The position numbers and the translations under genes were made by a program. Shown piece after piece: positions 19,809-30,300 of a stretch of DNA of 43,592 bases; position 1 is the stretch's first letter, and each line of letters starts with the position of its first letter. The notes beneath the pieces were generated by a model. The model worked only from the letters and a program-made list of their open reading frames with translations, had not been told where the DNA came from and did no database searches. Source of the DNA: Akkermansia muciniphila (lineage in GTDB: Bacteria; Verrucomicrobiota; Kiritimatiellia; RFP12; UBA1067); the NCBI GenBank assembly GCA_945870145.1, contig CAMBQV010000005.1:1-43592 (forward strand). Reading direction: 5' to 3'.

Positions 19809-20825
19809 CTAAACTCGAAGCGGAAGGCTGACTGGCTCGACCCGCAGGTCTCGCGCGGTACAGAATCCACCATCCTGGCAGAAACGCATCCTGCGAGCTC
19901 CTGTCTTTCGTTTTACACCGAAATGGGCGCGGTTTCGCTCGAAGACGGACTCCACGAAGGCCCTGCTACCGAAGGCCAGTCCATCTTTAAAATAGCGAAC
20001 GCGGCACCTCAGAAGTGCGGGCAGCGGCATCTTTCCATTACGTTCGATCACCTCGCTCACAACCTCGGGCGAGAATCCGATACGCTGCAGACATCCCACT
20101 TCATCACGATGCTCTTCGCCATGCGTGTAGAGGGATTTACGATAGGCGGCCAGCGCGTCTGACCAGGTCAACTCCTGCGAGCAACGGGAGAAGATTGACA
20201 GGATTCCCTGCCGTGCTACAGGAGACCCGCCACACGCTTCACCATAGCCACTCCAGCGATAGTCCGCAGGATCCTTGACGATCCCGGCACGCACGGGATT
20301 AAGGTCAATATAGGCCGCTATAACAGAAAGCGCCCGGCTTTCCCCCTCCACCAGTATACTGGCGTAGCGCCCTTCCCAGAGGGTTCCCACGCGCGAGTGG
20401 CGCCGATTGTACGAGATGGAGTAACATTGCTTGAGAAGCTTCATAAAAGGGCTGATGTCCCCCATACGCCGACGGAACCCCTCCTGCTCGCGTTCAGCGA
20501 GCAAGGTGAGGCCGTTCTTGCGCCACTCCGCCCAACGTTCCTTGCAACGGCTGGCTTCGAGCGTTCCATAAAACGCACGGATCCGCCTAATGAGTTCGGC
20601 CTCATCCAGCAAGGGCTGGACCGGCACGTCAAGCAGAAGATGAAAGTGATTCGAGAGAATCGCATACGTGAGAACCTTCACCCCAGAGAATTCCGCAGCC
20701 TTGCGCAGGATATGCCTGAAGATCTCCCGCTCGTCATCATCCATCTTAAAACTCCTGTCAACGATCCTGCTCGTGACATGGTAACACCCGACTCCCCCAT
20801 CCGCCTTAATTCTAGACTTTCTCAT
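19809..20825 (-). mobile_element. REP-associated tyrosine transposase (RAYT, Y1_Tnp family)
   Basis: The 338-residue protein is a HUH-type single-strand transposase of the TnpA_REP/RAYT group. It has GVGCYHVTSR at the N-terminus, the metal-binding SNHFHLLLDVP (His60, His62), and the tyrosine region CYSISYNRRHSRVGTLWEGRY, in which Tyr135 is the likely nucleophile. AAYIDLNPVRAGIV follows. The gene looks complete and possibly active. RAYTs usually do not move themselves but act on short palindromic repeats. Here such repeats are present on both sides: GGGGACAGAC to the left, and GTCTGTCCC copies plus a 21-bp palindrome to the right. The C-terminal extension beyond residue 200 is helical and basic, perhaps for DNA binding. 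Confidence 0.92.
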
Positions 20826-22501: not shown

Positions 22502-23242
22502 CTACCTCGGCCCGAGCGCATGCACCAGTGAATCCACGGACGCGTAACCGGATGCCGGACGTTTCGGTCGTTCGATGACCACGACCTCGCACCCGCTCTG
22601 GCGAGCAGCTTTAATCTTGGTGTCCACACCCCCTGCCTCACCGCTGTCCTTGGTCACAAGCACACCAAAGCCTTTCATATGGCTCCTGTTTTCTTCAACT
22701 GTGAAGGGGCCGTCAGCGCAGAGGATTTCGCGCTCGCTCAATCCCGCATCATGGCAGGCAGCCACAGAGTCAGGGTGATTCAATACACGCGCCTTCAGCG
22801 CAATGCCATAGCTACGCGCCTCAGTAATATAGGGTGCAAGATTGCGCACGCCAATGGTCAGGAAGACGGGCATGCCAAAGGAGAATGCCTGCTTCGCGGC
22901 AGACTGATGATCCGGGACGCGGTATACCGCCTCGACACTTGCACAGGGTCGCTCATAGGCCAGATAGCGGACGCCAGTCGCCTGACACGCCTTGTAAGCA
23001 TTCTGACTGACAGCCTCGGCGTAGGGATGCGTCGCATCCACGACAGCAGTTATCTTTTCATCGCGGATAAGATGCTCAATCCCCTGCTCATCCAGCATCC
23101 CGCACCGCACACGCACATGAGCGGGCATCTGTCCACGGGAAGCCATCGTGGTGGCCGCTGAGAGCAAGACCTCCCAGCCCTGTTTCACCAGCGCCTGGGC
23201 GATCTGTACTGTCTCGCTTGTTCCACCGAGCAACAAAATCAT
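22502..23242 (-). CDS. cbiJ: Cobalt-precorrin-6A reductase (CbiJ/CobK)
   Basis: The 246-residue protein starts with LLLGGTSETVQIA and has VVDATHPYAEAVSQNA and YERP, the landmarks of precorrin-6x reductases. It reduces the macrocycle of (cobalt-)precorrin-6A with a pyridine nucleotide during corrin ring synthesis. The genes around it are of the anaerobic (cobalt-early) type, so CbiJ is the appropriate name. It is the last gene of the operon, and its start overlaps the cbiH stop by 4 nt. Length and motifs are typical. Confidence 0.92.
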   Translation of the reverse strand: MILLLGGTSETVQIAQALVKQGWEVLLSAATTMASRGQMPAHVRVRCGMLDEQGIEHLIRDEKITAVVDATHPYAEAVSQNAYKACQATGVRYLAYERPCASVEAVYRVPDHQSAAKQAFSFGMPVFLTIGVRNLAPYITEARSYGIALKARVLNHPDSVAACHDAGLSEREILCADGPFTVEENRSHMKGFGVLVTKDSGEAGGVDTKIKAARQSGCEVVVIERPKRPASGYASVDSLVHALGPR

Positions 23243-23970
23243 AACTGATATCCGCGAGGGGTGACGAAATAGCTGTCAATCACTTTAGACTGGGTATTGC
23301 CGATAATAACAATGCTCCGCATGTTCACCTCTTGCGCGAGCAGGGAACCGAGATCCGTCATGACCAGGCGTTGATCCGGCGAGGAGATGGCCGTTCCGAT
23401 GCCGACAGGTGTTGTTGCAGGACGATGTTTCAGGAAGATGGCAACCGCCTCTTCCAGTTGGGTCACACGCTTGGTGGAGCGCGGATTATAGAGCACCACA
23501 ACCATGTCGGCAGCCGCGACCGCCTCCAAGCGAGTGCGGATCTGCTCCCAGGAGACCAGCAGGTCGCTGAGGCTGATGACCGCATAATCCAACATCAGCG
23601 GCGCCCCGAATGCAGCCGCAGCTGAGTTGGCGGCGGAGATGCCGGGTATGATCTCGATCGCAAGTCCAGGCGCTAACTGATGCGCCATCTCGATTGCGAG
23701 TCCGGCCATGCCATACACGCCAGCATCCCCGGAGGAGATGATGGCCACGGTCTCACCCTTCTGAGCATGTTCGATGGCGGCCTTGACACGTTCCTCCTCG
23801 CGGGTCATCCCTGTGGAGATGCAGACCTTGCCCGCGGTCAAATCAGCGATGGACTCTAAATAGGGCGCATAGCCTGCGATAACGCGGCTCGCCTGTATGG
23901 CCTGCTCGGCACGCGGGGTGCGGTCCAAGCGATGACCAGGACCGATCCCGACTACAAAGAGCTTTCCCAC
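23239..23970 (-). CDS. cbiH: Cobalt-precorrin-3B C17-methyltransferase (CbiH/CobJ)
   Basis: The 243-residue tetrapyrrole methylase opens with VVGIGPGHRLDRTPRAEQAI and has SSGDAGVYGMAGLAIE, EIIPGISAANSAAAAFGAPLMLDYAVISLSD (in pieces) and VVLYNPRS, which single out the CbiH/CobJ branch. In the anaerobic route it adds the C17 methyl and contracts the ring with extrusion of the C20 carbon. There is no extra Fe-S or CbiG domain fused. It overlaps cbiG by 19 nt and cbiJ by 4 nt. The assignment is secure. Confidence 0.93.
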   Translation of the reverse strand: MGKLFVVGIGPGHRLDRTPRAEQAIQASRVIAGYAPYLESIADLTAGKVCISTGMTREEERVKAAIEHAQKGETVAIISSGDAGVYGMAGLAIEMAHQLAPGLAIEIIPGISAANSAAAAFGAPLMLDYAVISLSDLLVSWEQIRTRLEAVAAADMVVVLYNPRSTKRVTQLEEAVAIFLKHRPATTPVGIGTAISSPDQRLVMTDLGSLLAQEVNMRSIVIIGNTQSKVIDSYFVTPRGYQL

Positions 23971-24722
23971 GCAATGGCCACGGTCACACCGTTCCGGTTG
24001 ATTCGCTTCTGAATTAATACTGTCCTCCTCCCCGCCAAGAGCGCAACAGGCTCTGCAACTGCGGGCAAATTTACCTTCTCCTGAGCCAGCGGCGTGGGCG
24101 CAAACTCGCGCGTGCAGGCCCTGATTTCATCCGATGCGATCACACGCAAGGGGATGCCAAGCTGTTGCGAAGCAACCAGGAGTCCTGGCTCTTCAGCCTT
24201 GATATCCGCAGTGGCCAGCAGACGCACATCTTTGAGACTGACCTGTGCGCTCTCCACGGCGAAGTGGATGGCCTCGACAATCGCCTCAACAGGGGCATCC
24301 TTGCGGCAGCCCACACCGATAATCAGATTTTTTTCAGCATCACTGGTGGTCGTAATCACTGGCTCGGCGCCAATCACATTCGCAACCCGCAACGTCAAGT
24401 CATTCGCGCCGCCTTCGTGTCCGCTCAAGAGGCTCACGGCATAACGCCCCATGACATCCACCACCACGACTGGCGGATCCGAGAGTTTACTTTTGATCAG
24501 TGGCGCAAGGGCTCGAACCGCAATGCCGCACGGACCAATAAAGACAATGCCCTTGGTCTTTGGAAACAACTCCGCAACAAGATCACTGGTACGTGAAAAG
24601 GGTTGTGTATCGCCACCCGATGCCACATCCACATGCAAATGGATCGCGGCCTCCCCGAGCGAGGCTTTCAAGCGCTTGGCCACGACCAGCCCTAAAGAAG
24701 ATAATGTCACAAGATCAAACAT
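23952..24722 (-). CDS. cbiG: Cobalt-precorrin-5A hydrolase (CbiG), short form
   Basis: CbiG opens the delta-lactone of cobalt-precorrin-5A and releases acetaldehyde, a step specific to the anaerobic pathway. Visible motifs are GPCGIAVRALAP (residues 63-74), LLSGHEGGAN (98-107), IIGVGCRKDAP and the C-terminal domain segment TADIKAEEPGL. The protein has 256 residues, clearly shorter than the roughly 320-370 usual for three-segment CbiG. The N and C domains are recognisable, so the reduction appears to be in the variable middle region. There is no sign of a frameshift. It overlaps orf76 by 8 nt and cbiH by 19 nt. Confidence 0.87.
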   Translation of the reverse strand: MFDLVTLSSLGLVVAKRLKASLGEAAIHLHVDVASGGDTQPFSRTSDLVAELFPKTKGIVFIGPCGIAVRALAPLIKSKLSDPPVVVVDVMGRYAVSLLSGHEGGANDLTLRVANVIGAEPVITTTSDAEKNLIIGVGCRKDAPVEAIVEAIHFAVESAQVSLKDVRLLATADIKAEEPGLLVASQQLGIPLRVIASDEIRACTREFAPTPLAQEKVNLPAVAEPVALLAGRRTVLIQKRINRNGVTVAIAWESSL

Positions 24723-24945
24723 CCTTCATTGCTCCATCTGTACCCTTCATTGCCATGCGCTTTGCATAATCAGAACGACGCCTCAACGCCTCATCAACAG
24801 AGAGATAGATCACCTTCTTTTGACTCCAATCATAAATTGGAACCTGAAGACCTGTAACACGATACGCTTCTGTTGCCTTCCATGTCGCCTCGTCCATGGC
24901 CTCGATGACATTTTTCGTTTCTTCGGATAATTCAACTTTTTTCAT
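24715..24945 (-). CDS. 76-residue ORF, possible partner of the zeta-like kinase domain
   Basis: A small charged protein: N-terminal MKKVELSEETKNVIEAMDEATWKATEAYR (helical, in pieces), then LQVPIYDWSQKKVIYLSVDEALRR, a beta-like segment followed by a helix. This layout, helix then 'VP.Y.W..KKV..L..DE', resembles small ORFs I have seen adjacent to zeta-type P-loop kinase genes and presumed to be antitoxins. That identification is from memory and unverified. Its ATG overlaps the stop of the CbiF-kinase fusion by 4 nt, and it overlaps cbiG by 8 nt, so it is fully embedded in the cobalamin operon. It is not a known corrin enzyme. Confidence 0.7.
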   Translation of the reverse strand: MKKVELSEETKNVIEAMDEATWKATEAYRVTGLQVPIYDWSQKKVIYLSVDEALRRRSDYAKRMAMKGTDGAMKDV

Positions 24946-26309
24946 AGGCCTATATCCTTTCGGATAATCGCGAACCGATCTTCATCGGGAATCGACTCAT
25001 TCCCGTTTCGTTCATATACTAAACACGTCTGTGACTCCGAATTATCAAACACCCTTAACGTATCAACGAATGACAAATAACAGGAGAGGTTTTCTCGTGA
25101 CCGCGCATATCGCCTCCGAACATCCTCATCCGGGACATGGTGTCCGCCCGCTTGGACACGCTGAAGGATACGGGAAACCAACAGATCGCTAGCAGGCGCC
25201 CAAAGATAGTACAGGTTAATCCGATACCCTTGCTCCTTCATACGGCGGATATGATTTATATATCCCATGCCGGACAACGTCGTCTCAAAGGCAAAATCAA
25301 CGCGCTGTTTAGAGAGCTCACCAATCCGCTCCAACACCAGTTTGCCGGCCTTTAAGGCGACATGCTGAGGGTTGAAAGGAGAGAGGCCCAAGGCGATCAA
25401 GTCCGGATTGACAAATTCGCAGCAGCCAGCATAACGTGGCAGATACTGAATCGCAAAAGTCGATTTTCCCGAACCATTCGGGCCAGCAACGATATGGCAC
25501 GTCGGGGCGCCTTCATACAACACGGGTGCCTCTTTAATTGTTGTCTCTTGCTCTTGCACCCCGTCTTTCACCTGCCTGTACCCATGTGCGAATTCGGGGG
25601 CATACAGACGCGACTGGGCGCCGGTGGAAGCGCGACGGACAATGAAGAGCGCGGTCTTCTCAATACCCTCTGCGCGAATTTTCTCTGCGATGTCGGCAAG
25701 CGTCCCCTGGACAATCTTCTGATCGGACCAAGAGGCGTGGAAGACCACGGCGGCTGGGCACTCCTTGCCATAATACTTCGCGAGGAGCGGCGCATGTTCA
25801 GCAATCGCATGAGCGGAGAGGAAGACGCAGAGCGTGGCACCGGTCTTTGCGAAATTTTCGAGCGCCTCAGCTTCTGGCATCGGTGTCCGGCCGGGCGTGC
25901 GGGTCAGGACGATACTCTGGGCGACCTCGGGGACAGTGAGTTCCCAGCCTAGCGCAGCTGCAGAGGCCTGAAAGGCACTGACCCCGGGAACCACTTCATA
26001 TTCAATGCCCAGCTTTTCAAGGTCGCTGATCTGCTCGCCAATGGCTCCGTAAATTGAGGGGTCGCCAGTATGCAGGCGCACCACATCGATTCCACGCTTC
26101 TGAGCATCTTGGAAAAGGGCGATCACTTCGGGATGCGACAACGACGCGGAGTCGTACTTCTCAGCCTCAGGGGCGATCTTTGCAAGAACAGCAGGACTGA
26201 CAAGCGAGCCTGCATAGATACAGACTTTGCACGTTACAACTAAGCGCAACGCCTTGACGGTCAGCAACTCCGGATCTCCAGGTCCGGCCCCTACAAAATA
26301 GATTTTCAT
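24942..26309 (-). CDS. cbiF: CbiF cobalt-precorrin-4 C11-methyltransferase fused to a zeta-toxin-like kinase
   Basis: The 455-residue frame encodes two complete domains. Residues 1 to about 245 are CbiF/CobM: VGAGPGDPELLTVKA, IYAGSLV, HTGDPSIYGAI, PGVSAFQASAAALG and the usual end LYAPEFAHGYR. Residues about 246-267 are a polar linker. Residues 268-455 are a zeta-toxin/ZTL-type P-loop kinase: Walker A GPNGSGKST (276-284), NPDLIALGLSPF (301-312), FETTLSG (341-347), GGHHVPDEDVRRRY (388-401) and VFDNS. The CbiF part methylates C11 of cobalt-precorrin-4. Zeta kinases typically phosphorylate UDP-N-acetyl sugars, but this substrate is unknown. No stop or frameshift separates the halves. A GTG at 25523 with AAAGAGG ahead could start the kinase alone. 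It overlaps cbiL and orf76 by 4 nt each. Confidence 0.92.
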   Translation of the reverse strand: MKIYFVGAGPGDPELLTVKALRLVVTCKVCIYAGSLVSPAVLAKIAPEAEKYDSASLSHPEVIALFQDAQKRGIDVVRLHTGDPSIYGAIGEQISDLEKLGIEYEVVPGVSAFQASAAALGWELTVPEVAQSIVLTRTPGRTPMPEAEALENFAKTGATLCVFLSAHAIAEHAPLLAKYYGKECPAAVVFHASWSDQKIVQGTLADIAEKIRAEGIEKTALFIVRRASTGAQSRLYAPEFAHGYRQVKDGVQEQETTIKEAPVLYEGAPTCHIVAGPNGSGKSTFAIQYLPRYAGCCEFVNPDLIALGLSPFNPQHVALKAGKLVLERIGELSKQRVDFAFETTLSGMGYINHIRRMKEQGYRINLYYLWAPASDLLVSRILQRVQAGGHHVPDEDVRRRYARSRENLSCYLSFVDTLRVFDNSESQTCLVYERNGNESIPDEDRFAIIRKDIGL

Positions 26310-27037
26310 TTCATCCCGTCCCTACTGGTATCCACAAGGATGATGGAGAGATAACCTGTCTTGTCTCCAGTCCCTCGCAGTCTCCTCAAGTCCGTTTCCA
26401 GATGTTCATCCGCCATGCCGACATGGGCGGCAAAGACACTTTTCTCCAGCACGTTGTGCTCTTCGAGCTTATCCAGAATTGCATCGAGCCGTTTGCCAAC
26501 CTTCATGATGACGACCGTTCCATTCGTCTTCAATGCCGTATCTAATGTCGCAAAATCATCTGCGGACGGCACGATGGCGACAGGATGCTTGCCTTTACCC
26601 ACTGGAAAGCACATCCTGGCAGCCACGGCACTGAAGGCTGTCACACCCGGGACTGTCTCAATGCGTGTGTCAGGGGCGATGGCAAGCAGTGCCTGCACAA
26701 GATAGATGTAGGTCGAATAGAGAAACGCGTCGCCCAGAGTCGGGAAGCAGACATCTTCGCCCTTGTTCAACAACGCCGCGACATAAGAAGCCGACTCGTT
26801 CCACTTGGCCATGAGCTCAGCGGGGTTGACGACCATGGGGAATACCAGCTCATGGATCTGCGTCGCCGGCTTCAAATGGGGCTGGATAATGCGTAACGCG
26901 ACGCTCTCAGAAGCTTCCGCCGCCTTGGGCACGACAACATGGCGACAGGAGCCGAGAAGCCGCGCGCCTTTGACAGTCACCAGCTCTGGATCGCCCGGAC
27001 CAATTCCAATTCCAAACAATGTCCCTTGTTTATCCAT
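26306..27037 (-). CDS. cbiL: Cobalt-precorrin-2 C20-methyltransferase (CbiL/CobI)
   Basis: The 243-residue tetrapyrrole methylase starts GIGIGPGDPELVTVKGARLL and contains FPTLGDAFLYSTYIYL, VPGVTAFSAVAARM and the middle VVPKAAEASESVALRI, the hallmarks of C20 precorrin-2 methyltransferases. It catalyses the first committed methylation of the corrin branch. The ATG overlaps the cbiE stop by one base (TAATG), and its stop overlaps the cbiF start by 4 nt. No unusual features. Confidence 0.93.
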   Translation of the reverse strand: MDKQGTLFGIGIGPGDPELVTVKGARLLGSCRHVVVPKAAEASESVALRIIQPHLKPATQIHELVFPMVVNPAELMAKWNESASYVAALLNKGEDVCFPTLGDAFLYSTYIYLVQALLAIAPDTRIETVPGVTAFSAVAARMCFPVGKGKHPVAIVPSADDFATLDTALKTNGTVVIMKVGKRLDAILDKLEEHNVLEKSVFAAHVGMADEHLETDLRRLRGTGDKTGYLSIILVDTSRDGMK

Positions 27038-27678
27038 TAAACCTCTTTTCGTGATGATGATTTTATCACCACGATCGTCCGCGAGGAAAGCTCCATTTTA
27101 CTAAACATCTCACCATCCACTTCGTCAATCCGTTCTGTCGGGAGGGAGAGATCCTGGCAGACAATCAGTTTGTCGGCCTTACCCCATGACAAATAGAGCT
27201 CGATCACCCATTGCTGTGAGACATGATGACCGCACAGAATGACCAGCGTTTTAACGTTCTCCAGCTCCGTTGCGCTCAGGGATGGCAGGGATTTATGGGC
27301 GGATATGATTCGAGCCTCCATCCAGTCCAATCCGAGCCGGGCAAAGAGGAGCTGGACCGAACTGATTCCGGGGATCACGTCACAGGCCGGCAGTCCAAAG
27401 CGTTGAATCACAGGAGTTGCCAAACTGCAAAGCCCCGGGTCGCCACTGACCAGCACAGCTACACGCTTCCCCTCTGCGACACAAGCGGCGATTGCTTGGA
27501 GAGCCTCTTCGATATCCGAGGCAAGCGGGATCTGGGGCTTGCCTTCAGACGCATACCGTTTCAACAGTTGAGTTACGCCAGCATAAGCATCAGCACTGGC
27601 AATGGCTTTCAGGCCTGCCTCAGTCATGTAGTCGGGAGCACCTGGGCCGCACCCGACTATTGTAATTTTTTTTGTCAT
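27037..27678 (-). CDS. cbiE: Cobalt-precorrin-7 C5-methyltransferase (CbiE)
   Basis: The 213-residue methylase has ITIVGCGPGAPDYMTEAGLKAI, VLVSGDPGLCSLATP and VIPGISSVQLLFARLGLDW, which match CbiE, the N-terminal half of the aerobic CobL. The CbiT decarboxylase/C15-methyltransferase half is not fused and no separate cbiT is in the window. It overlaps cbiD by 4 nt. The assignment is good, because CbiE is distinguished from the other methylases by its short length and the GCGPG start. Confidence 0.9.
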   Translation of the reverse strand: MTKKITIVGCGPGAPDYMTEAGLKAIASADAYAGVTQLLKRYASEGKPQIPLASDIEEALQAIAACVAEGKRVAVLVSGDPGLCSLATPVIQRFGLPACDVIPGISSVQLLFARLGLDWMEARIISAHKSLPSLSATELENVKTLVILCGHHVSQQWVIELYLSWGKADKLIVCQDLSLPTERIDEVDGEMFSKMELSSRTIVVIKSSSRKEV

Positions 27679-28754
27679 TTAAAGTCCTTTAAGTCTGAAT
27701 CACTCCCTAACATCTCGCCTGCCATATTCACAAGCCCGACAGAAATCTGACAACAATCACCGCATTTACGCGCGGCGGCACGGGCAATGGCCTCACCCAG
27801 TTCAGTGGCGAGCTTTCTCCGTTCCTCCAGCTTCAACATCTCAAAGAGGCCTTCCATGGTCACAGGCTCCTCATCAAGGCTGGGCATCAGCCCCAACTTT
27901 CTGACAATCTCAAGTGCGGAGTCCGACCGATAGGAATGGGTATCCCACGCCTCGCCAGCCAGCTTGGCCAACTTTCCGGGGTGGCCCCAGAGCAACACAT
28001 GCTTGAAGGAGTATTTACTCAGCCCCTCCAGCACGAACCCCCACTCATTACCGACCTCAATCAGTTGGTCTTCGGACAATTTTAACTGGCGCCTCGCAGA
28101 ACGTTCGCCGATATGTCCAGGCACCAGTACGGGATGGGTCACCCCTGCGGCCTGAGCCACATCCAGCTCGCAGGCCACGGAACAACGGATCGCCTGACAG
28201 CTGAAAGGGCGGACCCTGCCAGTTGTCCCAAGGATGGAAATTCCGCCGACAATACCGAGGCGCGGATTAAAGGTCTTTTTCGCCAACTCCTCGCCCCCGG
28301 GAATTGAAAGTGTCACACGGACGCCCCGCTCTGTCACCTCCCGGATCGCTGCGCAAATCATCTTTCGGGGCCCCGGATTAATTGCTGGCTCGCCTGGAGG
28401 GATTGAGAGTCCGGGCTTTGTCACCCGGCCGACCCCCTCGCCTGCCTCGAACGCAATATCCGCTTTCTCCTGCCAACAAACCTTCGCAACCACCAGAACG
28501 CCATGGGTGACATCTGGGTCGTCCCCTGCATCCTTGCGAATAGCCGATTCGACTGAACCGTCCAAGCACCGCACCCACTCGACCTTAAAAGCAATAGCAT
28601 CACCGGAGGGGAAAGGCACAGTGACCTCAGAGAGACAAGGCCTGCCCCCCAACAATCCCACTACCGCAGCTTTTGCGGCAGCAGCGGCGCAGGCGCCCGT
28701 GGTAAACCCCTCCCTTAACTGGGCAGACTGGGAAGAGTTCTGTCCGGGAGCCAT
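27675..28754 (-). CDS. cbiD: Cobalt-precorrin-5B C1-methyltransferase (CbiD)
   Basis: CbiD performs C1 methylation specific to the anaerobic pathway. The hallmark LREGFTTGACAAAAAKAA lies near the N-terminus, followed by NPGPRKMI, GVRVTLSIPGGEELAKKTFNPRLGIVGGISILGTTG (in pieces) and a HVLLWGHPGKLAKLA block. The frame is open back to 28994, but that part overlaps the divergent SHD1 gene and looks non-coding. Two starts are credible: ATG 28754 (GAGG about 11 nt upstream, 12 residues before LREGFTTG) and ATG 28778. I use 28754. This is the first gene of the operon. No cobalamin riboswitch was recognised in the 145-bp divergent region. Confidence 0.9.
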   Translation of the reverse strand: MAPGQNSSQSAQLREGFTTGACAAAAAKAAVVGLLGGRPCLSEVTVPFPSGDAIAFKVEWVRCLDGSVESAIRKDAGDDPDVTHGVLVVAKVCWQEKADIAFEAGEGVGRVTKPGLSIPPGEPAINPGPRKMICAAIREVTERGVRVTLSIPGGEELAKKTFNPRLGIVGGISILGTTGRVRPFSCQAIRCSVACELDVAQAAGVTHPVLVPGHIGERSARRQLKLSEDQLIEVGNEWGFVLEGLSKYSFKHVLLWGHPGKLAKLAGEAWDTHSYRSDSALEIVRKLGLMPSLDEEPVTMEGLFEMLKLEERRKLATELGEAIARAAARKCGDCCQISVGLVNMAGEMLGSDSDLKDFK

Positions 28755-28831
28755 AAACTGTTCATCCTCATGTCCCATACGTTTTGGATATATTAGCAGG
28801 ATATTCCGTCCAAAAAAACAAGAAAAACGTA

Positions 28832-28861
28832 GTGACAAGGAATGGTTTAGCATGGTAATAT
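28832..28861 (+). promoter_or_regulatory. Possible promoter for the SHD1-domain gene
   Basis: GTGACA (28832-28837, five of six to the -35 consensus) and TAATAT (28856-28861, four of six to the -10 consensus) are 18 bp apart in the divergent region and would start transcription about 30 nt before ATG 28900. This is a moderate match only. Confidence 0.35.
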
Positions 28862-28899
28862 CAAAAAGTATTAAACAAATTTTATTTTGGAAGACCATC

Positions 28900-30300
28900 A
28901 TGAAAATTTTATTTTTATCTTTTACCCTTTTATGGTCAACGTTTCTCATCGCAGAAGAGCCCTCCCGCACTTGGACCTCCAAGCATGGACTCACGGTTCA
29001 GGGGGCTTTTCAGAGCGTAGACGATGGAACAGTGACAATCAAGAAGCCGAGTGGCGATATTTTTAAAGCCAAACTGGATTCGCTCTCCAGTGCTGATATC
29101 GAGTATGTTACAAAAGTTTCCTTTGCAACACCCGTAACTGCACCTGCGCCAGGACCATTGCCTGCTAATCCTGTACCCTCCACCAAAACGGTCAAGGTCA
29201 CGTTTGTTCTGGATCCTAATCCAGCGGAACCCTCTTTGAAGGAGGTCGGTGTATCGCCTCGCGTCAAGATGAACGACAGTATTGAACTGAATCTTTCAAT
29301 GGAACGCCACAAAGAAAACGAAGTTATCCTAGACTCAGCCTGGATGATGGATTCACTTGATGTTGTCAGCGGGACACTCAAAGCGACGACAGACGGCCTC
29401 CCATCCATAAGTACCGACGGACTCTTTTATTTTCTCTCCTACACTGTCGAAAACAAGGGTCATGGAGGTTCGATCGTGCCAGCTCCTGTTCTCCAGGATT
29501 CCCGCAACCGCAAATATTATGCTCTTTCCGCAATCGAAAGAAACATAGACTCTTATATTCCCTCCGGGATGTCTTCCGCCGAGAAGGAGTATCTTCGCCC
29601 TGAGTTCAAAAATAAGTTCTGTTCCGTTTATGAACTCCCTAAAGGAACGACCATCAGCCGGATTGAAATTTTTCCAATTCGTATAACCAGGAATCCCATG
29701 CTCATCTCATGGATCCATAGCGGGAAACTTTCTGGAAAGGCCATTGATCTCACTCCCGATGGAGCCCCCGGCGCGACGACCCCCACTGCGAATACGACAA
29801 AGACGGATCCAGCTGCAGAGAAGGCAAAAGTTTTTATGTCCTGCAAACAGAAAACCAGCAAGGGAACAGAGTTGACTCAGCGCGTCCAAACACGCGTATT
29901 GGCCTACACAGTTGACCTCCGCCTGACAAAACCTCAACAGAAGGAGATGGCCATTAAGGCTTACTTTATCGCTACCGATCCAGAAGGCGATGGCATTGTC
30001 GACATCGTAGATCAGCAAGTCTCTTTACAGCAAGGAAAGTCCTTTTCAACAGCAGTGGAATCAAAGCCAGTAAAAGAACGTTCTTCAAGAAATGAGAATA
30101 CTGTTTTCACAAAACTCAAAGGTGCCATTATCCAGCTTTGGGCAGACGGGGAAATTGTTGACACCTGGACCTCTAATTCCCAATGGGACAAATTAGCGAA
30201 ACTCCCTGATCTTCAAGTAAAGATGCGCAAGGCGAAGATTCACGACTTCCTTGACGATGATCAGCTGGATAGGGATCGGCGCCCCAAAAAGAGATTCTAG
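28900..30300 (+). CDS. Secreted SHD1-domain protein
   Basis: The 466-residue protein has a signal peptide (residues 1-18, MKILFLSFTLLWSTFLIA). An SHD1-like domain follows at about residues 21-72, with RTWTSKHGLTVQGAF, VTIKKPSGDIF and LSSADIEYV. SHD1 modules of this kind are abundant in exported proteins of Planctomycetes and relatives. The remainder is a Pro/Ala linker, a beta-rich region with conserved aromatic spacing, a second Thr/Pro linker near residue 300 and a C-terminal beta region. No catalytic motif was found. ATG 28900 is preferred over the longer open frame because it begins the signal peptide. It is divergent from cbiD and convergent with cbiO; the function is unknown. Confidence 0.8.
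   Translation: MKILFLSFTLLWSTFLIAEEPSRTWTSKHGLTVQGAFQSVDDGTVTIKKPSGDIFKAKLDSLSSADIEYVTKVSFATPVTAPAPGPLPANPVPSTKTVKVTFVLDPNPAEPSLKEVGVSPRVKMNDSIELNLSMERHKENEVILDSAWMMDSLDVVSGTLKATTDGLPSISTDGLFYFLSYTVENKGHGGSIVPAPVLQDSRNRKYYALSAIERNIDSYIPSGMSSAEKEYLRPEFKNKFCSVYELPKGTTISRIEIFPIRITRNPMLISWIHSGKLSGKAIDLTPDGAPGATTPTANTTKTDPAAEKAKVFMSCKQKTSKGTELTQRVQTRVLAYTVDLRLTKPQQKEMAIKAYFIATDPEGDGIVDIVDQQVSLQQGKSFSTAVESKPVKERSSRNENTVFTKLKGAIIQLWADGEIVDTWTSNSQWDKLAKLPDLQVKMRKAKIHDFLDDDQLDRDRRPKKRF

What the first reader, a model, noticed from the sequence alone, without database searches (positions are those of the whole stretch)
24942..26309. Cobalt-precorrin-4 methyltransferase fused in frame to a zeta-toxin-like kinase
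One uninterrupted 455-codon frame carries a full CbiF domain, including its normal C-terminal LYAPEFAHGYR, then a 22-residue polar linker and a full ZTL-type P-loop kinase with Walker A, NPDLI, FETTLSG and GGHHVP blocks. I know of no described link between corrin synthesis and zeta-type kinases. Possible explanations are addiction of the operon to a toxin, a new kinase acting on a corrin or nucleotide-loop intermediate, or a recent accidental fusion.
Basis: partly seen in the sequence, partly recalled or inferred. Interest (0 to 1): 0.85.

Follow-up and report, generated by a model that had tools for sequence, protein, structure and literature searches.

The report
Vitamin B12 enzyme fused to toxin-like kinase
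A gene for making vitamin B12 has been joined in one reading frame to a zeta-toxin-like kinase whose probable antidote gene sits right behind it, in two related bacterial species, which suggests that a selfish toxin-antitoxin cassette hooked itself onto a vitamin operon.

Summary
On the minus strand, 24942-26309 is one open 455-codon frame: a complete CbiF (TIGR01465, above cut-off), a 22-residue linker and a zeta-toxin-fold kinase (PF06414, above cut-off). It is no assembly slip: a second species of the genus has the same 455-aa protein. It is the only CbiF in either genome.
Similar small ORFs sit in this place behind the kinase at 36 of 39 loci I read. Kinase plus small protein is therefore a widespread bicistronic cassette that looks like a toxin-antitoxin (TA) module, inserted between cbiF and cbiG. 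Same-class operons have cbiF-cbiG without it. Elsewhere the kinase carries HTH domains. The best structural matches are AvrRxo1:Arc1, epsilon/zeta and PezAT.
Between the two species the kinase C-lobe and half of the small ORF diverge as one 456-nt block (66% against 92% identity), which ties the two proteins together. All 34 family-conserved kinase residues are intact. CobU is present in both genomes, so a replacement corrin kinase is unlikely.
Verdict: a new variant of a known kind. Toxicity, substrate and any benefit of the fusion are untested.

The parts
25575..26309 (-). CbiF (cobalt-precorrin-4 C11-methyltransferase) domain of the fusion, residues 1-245
   Evidence: TIGR01465 304.8 bits, above cut-off; 96% aa identity and dN/dS 0.06 against G001; 55-58% to the closest CbiF domains of the same class
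25509..25574 (-). 22-residue linker, residues 246-267; contains a possible internal GTG start at residue 263 (window 25521-25523) behind an AAAGAGG stretch
   Evidence: sequence similarity to the N-terminal extension of stand-alone kinases was not significant
24942..25508 (-). zeta-toxin-like P-loop kinase domain, residues 268-455, with stop codon
   Evidence: PF06414 above cut-off; all 34 columns conserved in at least 93% of 31 family members intact; AF2 model pLDDT 88; top 12 PDB matches are zeta-type TA toxins
24715..24945 (-). 76-aa small partner (candidate antitoxin); its ATG overlaps the fusion's TGA (ATGA), its end overlaps the start of cbiG by 8 nt
   Evidence: 78% identical in G001; small ORF in this place behind 36 of 39 kinases read; no Pfam, NCBIfam, PADLOC or PHROGs family; predicted helix-hairpin-helix
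24819..25274 (-). mosaic block: kinase C-lobe (from residue 346) plus about the first half of the small partner, diverged as one unit between the two species
   Evidence: 66% nt identity inside, 92% outside, LR 147 against a maximum of 14.6 in 30 shuffles; dS about 1.55 against 0.33 in the CbiF part
22502..24722 (-). downstream corrin genes cbiG (23952-24722), cbiH (23239-23970), cbiJ (22502-23242)
   Evidence: Pfam/NCBIfam
26306..28994 (-). upstream corrin genes cbiL (26306-27037), cbiE (27037-27678), cbiD (27675-28994)
   Evidence: Pfam/NCBIfam

Best explanation
A bicistronic toxin-antitoxin-like cassette (zeta-fold small-molecule kinase, then a small partner started from an overlapping ATGA) inserted between cbiF and cbiG in an ordinary anaerobic cobalamin operon, in an ancestor of this genus. 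The kinase frame became continuous with cbiF, so one 455-aa protein carries both activities. CbiF is inferred still to do its methylation, because it is the only CbiF in the genome. The small partner, translated by coupling from the same mRNA, is inferred to bind the kinase C-lobe through its N-terminal helix and hold it inactive. If expression stops or the partner is lost, a longer-lived kinase would phosphorylate a nucleotide-type substrate (UDP-GlcNAc or NAD in known relatives; unknown here) and arrest growth, which would tie the cell to this operon. Shown: frame, architecture, conservation, constant partner, empty-site operons, block divergence, intact conserved residues. Inferred: toxicity, neutralisation, substrate, addiction.
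For: Small ORF behind the kinase at 36 of 39 loci, start mostly at -4, with a profile linking distant partners (7 of 15 score better than all 300 shuffles). Relatives of the kinase are on 595 PLSDB plasmid records and in many class genomes, at unrelated chromosomal sites. Other members have N-terminal Xre- or MarR-like HTH domains, as often seen in TA modules. The best PDB matches are all zeta-type TA toxins, led by AvrRxo1:Arc1, in which the antitoxin gene also lies downstream (PMC4938570). The kinase C-lobe and first half of the partner diverge as one block, as expected for two proteins that must match. Same-class operon L089 has cbiD-E-L-F-G-H-J in the same order without the cassette, and in L086 cbiF overlaps cbiG. 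CobU and CobS are present.
Against: No toxicity or neutralisation has been shown for this kinase subfamily in anything I could find. The small partner has no recognised antitoxin fold or DNA-binding domain, so it could be a chaperone or regulator. Sequence similarity to solved zeta toxins is not detectable by a single-sequence search; only fold and Pfam link them. The dN/dS values of the block are for diverged versions and say little about recent selection. The library holds only two genomes of the genus.
Confidence: 0.65

Rival explanations
1. The kinase is a metabolic kinase recruited to cobalamin synthesis, acting on a corrin, lower-ligand or nucleotide-loop intermediate, with the small protein as its subunit.
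For: In-frame fusion with a corrin enzyme in the middle of the operon; retained in both species.
Against: CobU and CobS are present in both genomes; none of the other class cbi operons read has the kinase behind cbiF; the nearest stand-alone kinases sit in genomes with no strong CbiF match; the kinase C-lobe and partner diverge far more between the two species than the cbi genes do.
Confidence: 0.08
2. The join is functionally silent: a free kinase of about 193 aa is made from an internal GTG at residue 263, and the fused form is a by-product. The biology is that of an ordinary embedded TA cassette.
For: GTG263 is preserved in both species; the window has AAAGAGG five bases before it; the product would match the length of the roughly 190-aa stand-alone kinases.
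Against: The SD-like stretch is weaker in G001 (AAAGAGA); the linker has no ATG; no ribosome data; in-frame GTGs are frequent by chance.
Confidence: 0.15
3. Neutral accident: the cassette landed behind cbiF, the stop was lost, and the fusion is tolerated. The kinase is not toxic, or has another housekeeping role, and gives no addiction.
For: Corrin enzymes tolerate fusions well, as seen in CbiE-CbiL-CbiF and CbiE-CbiF proteins of the class; the cassette also lies just behind other genes such as leuS or a class I/II aminotransferase gene.
Against: All 34 conserved kinase residues and both reading frames are intact in two species whose CbiF parts differ by dS about 0.33; both versions of the diverged block stayed intact.
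Confidence: 0.12

Closest known systems
AvrRxo1:Arc1 and its environmental homologues (zeta:epsilon superfamily; PDB 4z8q-4z8v)
   Same: Best structural match (E 8e-10, 20% identity); toxin gene first, small antitoxin gene directly downstream (PMC4938570).
   Different: No injected-effector context here; small partner shows no significant fold match to any PDB entry; the kinase domain is much shorter and fused to CbiF; substrate unknown.
epsilon/zeta and PezAT type II TA systems (PDB 1gvn, 3q8x, 2p5t)
   Same: Kinase fold and PF06414 membership; intact Walker A.
   Different: The partner gene lies downstream rather than upstream and is not an epsilon/PezA homologue by Pfam; UDP-GlcNAc pocket cannot be shown to be conserved.
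EzeT of Escherichia coli
   Same: A zeta-type kinase with an N-terminal fused domain in one polypeptide (PMC4826407).
   Different: EzeT's N-terminal domain is a cis antitoxin; here it is a complete corrin methyltransferase and a separate small partner remains.
CbiF/CobM (TIGR01465) and natural corrin-enzyme fusions
   Same: Complete CbiF at the N terminus; multi-domain corrin enzymes occur naturally (L087, L088).
   Different: The partner domain here is not a corrin enzyme.

Membership tests
CbiF/CobM | Full-length match to the equivalog model above cut-off | tested here: met
   TIGR01465, residues 3-245, model 1-247, 304.8 against 259.65 bits
CbiF/CobM | C11 methyltransferase activity | not testable with these tools
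   Only CbiF found in the genome; activity inferred
Zeta_toxin family (PF06414) | Match above the Pfam gathering score | tested here: met
   39.7 against 22.3 bits
Zeta_toxin family (PF06414) | Zeta-toxin fold with intact Walker A and family-conserved motifs | tested here: met
   AF2 model pLDDT 88; top 12 PDB matches are zeta-type toxins; K282, D303, E342, R380, R384, R399, R400 conserved
Zeta_toxin family (PF06414) | UDP-GlcNAc phosphorylation | not testable with these tools
   No enzymology; pocket residues not aligned with confidence
epsilon/zeta, PezAT type II TA system | Antitoxin homologous to epsilon or PezA, encoded upstream | tested here: not met
   Small partner is downstream and matches no Pfam, NCBIfam or PADLOC model and no PDB fold
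AvrRxo1:Arc1-type TA | Kinase gene followed directly by a small gene | tested here: met
   ATGA overlap in the window; small ORF at 36 of 39 loci
AvrRxo1:Arc1-type TA | Small protein homologous to Arc1 | tested here: inconclusive
   AF2 model of the small protein is weak (pLDDT 74) and finds no significant PDB match
Type II TA system (general) | Toxin arrests growth and small protein neutralises it | not testable with these tools
   Needs expression in a laboratory strain
Type II TA system (general) | Constant two-gene linkage, dispersed sites, presence on plasmids | tested here: met

The most novel reading that the evidence does not exclude
The fusion couples the two activities: CbiF acts as a cis regulator or sensor of the kinase, for example by binding its corrin substrate or S-adenosylmethionine, or the kinase is aimed at the corrin pathway. 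Toxin activation, or dormancy, would then follow the state of vitamin B12 synthesis.
Probability: 0.1. Interest if true: 0.85.

Novelty: new variant of a known kind. Interest (0 to 1): 0.55.

Why it matters
If the kinase is a toxin, this is a TA module welded to a biosynthetic enzyme, so losing the toxin gene from its 5' end also costs the cell CbiF. That is a simple way to make an addiction module hard to lose, and a testable case of operon addiction. The small partner of this dispersed cassette has no family model in the libraries searched and is a candidate new antitoxin family. The joint divergence of toxin C-lobe and antitoxin N-terminal half points to where the two proteins may recognise each other.

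Tried and rejected
Assembly error or frameshift: rejected, same protein in a second species. Kinase replacing CobU: rejected, CobU present in both genomes. Linker as a remnant of the roughly 65-aa N-terminal extension of the nearest stand-alone kinases: looked suggestive by eye, but not significant against shuffles (p about 0.14). B12 riboswitch control of the operon: none found (whole window at gathering scores, operon upstream region at E up to 1). Phage origin: only 4 phage records with weak kinase hits and none in viral contigs. Other CbiF-zeta fusions: none besides the two in about 590 distinct genomes, nor in the GTDB contig scan, which is a seed search of limited sensitivity. Long stop-to-stop frames in front of other kinases: in L110 and L112 apparently spurious low-complexity frames, in L111, L115, L116 and L117 real HTH domains. 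Sequence search of PDB: no significant hit. A defence-system label: PADLOC gave only weak P-loop hits. Synechocystis pSYSG homologue: the toxin tested in that paper from this plasmid is a PIN protein, not this kinase.

Full report
Observation. The minus strand of 24942-26309 holds a single 455-codon frame. Its first 245 residues match the CbiF/CobM equivalog over its full length (304.8 bits, cut-off 259.65), and its C-terminal part matches Zeta_toxin PF06414 (39.7 bits, cut-off 22.3). It lies in a corrin operon read on the minus strand: cbiD, cbiE, cbiL, cbiF-kinase, cbiG, cbiH, cbiJ, with cbiQ and cbiO-type transporter genes further upstream.

Reality of the fusion. The window is contig C5 of a 2.43 Mb, 79%-complete genome. 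A second species of the same genus (G001; contig CAIZQW010000157.1) has the same 455-aa protein at 87% identity, in the same operon. No second CbiF was found in either genome. The two fused kinases form one clade (99/98), so the fusion most simply happened once, before the two species split. Across 162 genomes of the order, strong CbiF matches occur only in these two. Five other genomes of the class have CbiF at 46-58% identity; none shows a kinase behind it where the sequence could be read. Two of those operons serve as empty sites: L089 has cbiD-E-L-F-G-H-J in the same order, and in L086 cbiG overlaps the end of cbiF.

The missed gene. The other gene joints of the operon overlap, but about 220 nt separate the fusion from cbiG. 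That gap is filled by a 76-aa ORF (24715-24945) that starts with an ATGA overlap on the fusion's stop. It is 78% identical in G001, and a homologue stands directly behind the close stand-alone kinases of the family (41-67% identity). Over 39 kinase loci read, 36 have such a small ORF, mostly at -4, also in cyanobacterial plasmids, Gastranaerophilales and Rhodocyclales. Two more are cut by contig ends, and an E. coli plasmid has a small ORF upstream instead. A profile of 20 close partners scores 7 of 15 distant partners above all 300 shuffled controls. No Pfam (gathering score), NCBIfam, PADLOC or PHROGs model covers it. AlphaFold2 gives helix, hairpin, helix at moderate confidence (pLDDT 74), without a significant PDB match.

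What the cassette is. Among 346 class genomes, 66 match the fusion protein at E up to 1e-35, nearly all through the kinase. Relatives are on 595 plasmid records, where the listed ones are mostly annotated 'zeta toxin family protein', and at most weakly in phages. Stand-alone copies lie at unrelated chromosomal sites, often just behind a same-strand gene such as leuS or a class I/II aminotransferase gene. Some members carry Xre-type or MarR-like HTH domains in front of the kinase and still keep a small partner. The AlphaFold2 model (pLDDT 88) matches AvrRxo1:Arc1, epsilon/zeta and PezAT ahead of every other fold. In AvrRxo1:Arc1 the antitoxin gene is also downstream of the toxin gene (PMC4938570). 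EzeT is a precedent for a zeta kinase with an N-terminal fused domain (PMC4826407). By fold, gene order, distribution and constant partner this works like a TA module; that it is one is inferred.

Mosaic. Between window and G001 the CbiF part and kinase N-lobe are close (dS 0.33 and 0.37; 96% and 99% amino-acid identity). From residue 346 to about the middle of the small ORF identity falls to 66% (dS about 1.3-1.55), then returns to over 90%. A two-breakpoint fit puts the block at 24819-25274 with a likelihood ratio of 147, against at most 14.6 in 30 shuffles. Among 31 kinases, other pairs with equally similar N-lobes have C-lobes at least 82% identical; this pair has 60%. Both versions keep their frames and all 34 conserved kinase residues. 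The simplest reading (inference) is recombination that replaced the toxin C-lobe and the antitoxin's N-terminal half together, which is what a matched binding pair would require. Local assembly chimerism is not excluded, but would have to keep both frames.

Corrin function of the kinase. CobU and CobS are present in both genomes, close together on another contig, so the kinase does not fill the known kinase step of the pathway. The nearest stand-alone relatives live in genomes without a strong CbiF match. No riboswitch was found. A role in corrin chemistry is therefore unlikely, though not excluded.

Internal start. GTG at residue 263 is kept in both species, behind AAAGAGG in the window and AAAGAGA in G001. 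A free 193-aa kinase might therefore be made as well. Its similarity in length to stand-alone kinases makes this a serious rival to a purely fused product.

Substrate. In zeta toxin UDP-GlcNAc is the substrate; AvrRxo1 phosphorylates NAD (PMC5491322, title and abstract) and shares little of the zeta substrate pocket (PMC4938570). I could not align the pocket with confidence, so the substrate is open.

Verdict. A real, conserved, apparently single-origin fusion between a corrin methyltransferase and a TA-like kinase that retains its small partner. Each half is a known kind; the combination, the constant unnamed partner and the block divergence are new as far as the searched papers and genomes show. 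Interest is moderate: the surprise is in the attachment of the cassette, and its meaning depends on untested toxicity.

Noticed in passing
window 19809-20825 (-): IS200-like (Y1) transposase gene about 1.7 kb beyond the end of the corrin operon.
   Followed up: no
window 28234-30300 (+); L032 2006-3409 (-): Unannotated protein (467 aa in L032, apparently secreted) encoded on the opposite strand between cbiD and the cbiO-type gene; no Pfam match; conserved in G001.
   Followed up: no
L111 1102-2166, L115 1363-2301, L116 1027-1887, L117 962-1894: Zeta-like kinases fused at the N terminus to Xre-like or MarR-like DNA-binding domains, still followed by a small partner ORF.
   Followed up: partly
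L061, L057, L042: Kinase plus small-partner cassettes placed immediately behind other genes (a class I/II aminotransferase gene, leuS), suggesting a habit of settling at gene ends.
   Followed up: partly
L087 2598-4853; L088 4936-6531: Natural CbiE-CbiL-CbiF and CbiE-CbiF fusions in other families of the class.
   Followed up: no
L096 2182-4917 (Synechocystis plasmid pSYSG): Homologous kinase plus 59-aa ORF beside an annotated nucleotidyltransferase gene and DUF4433/macro-domain genes; not tested in the published TA survey of that strain.
   Followed up: partly
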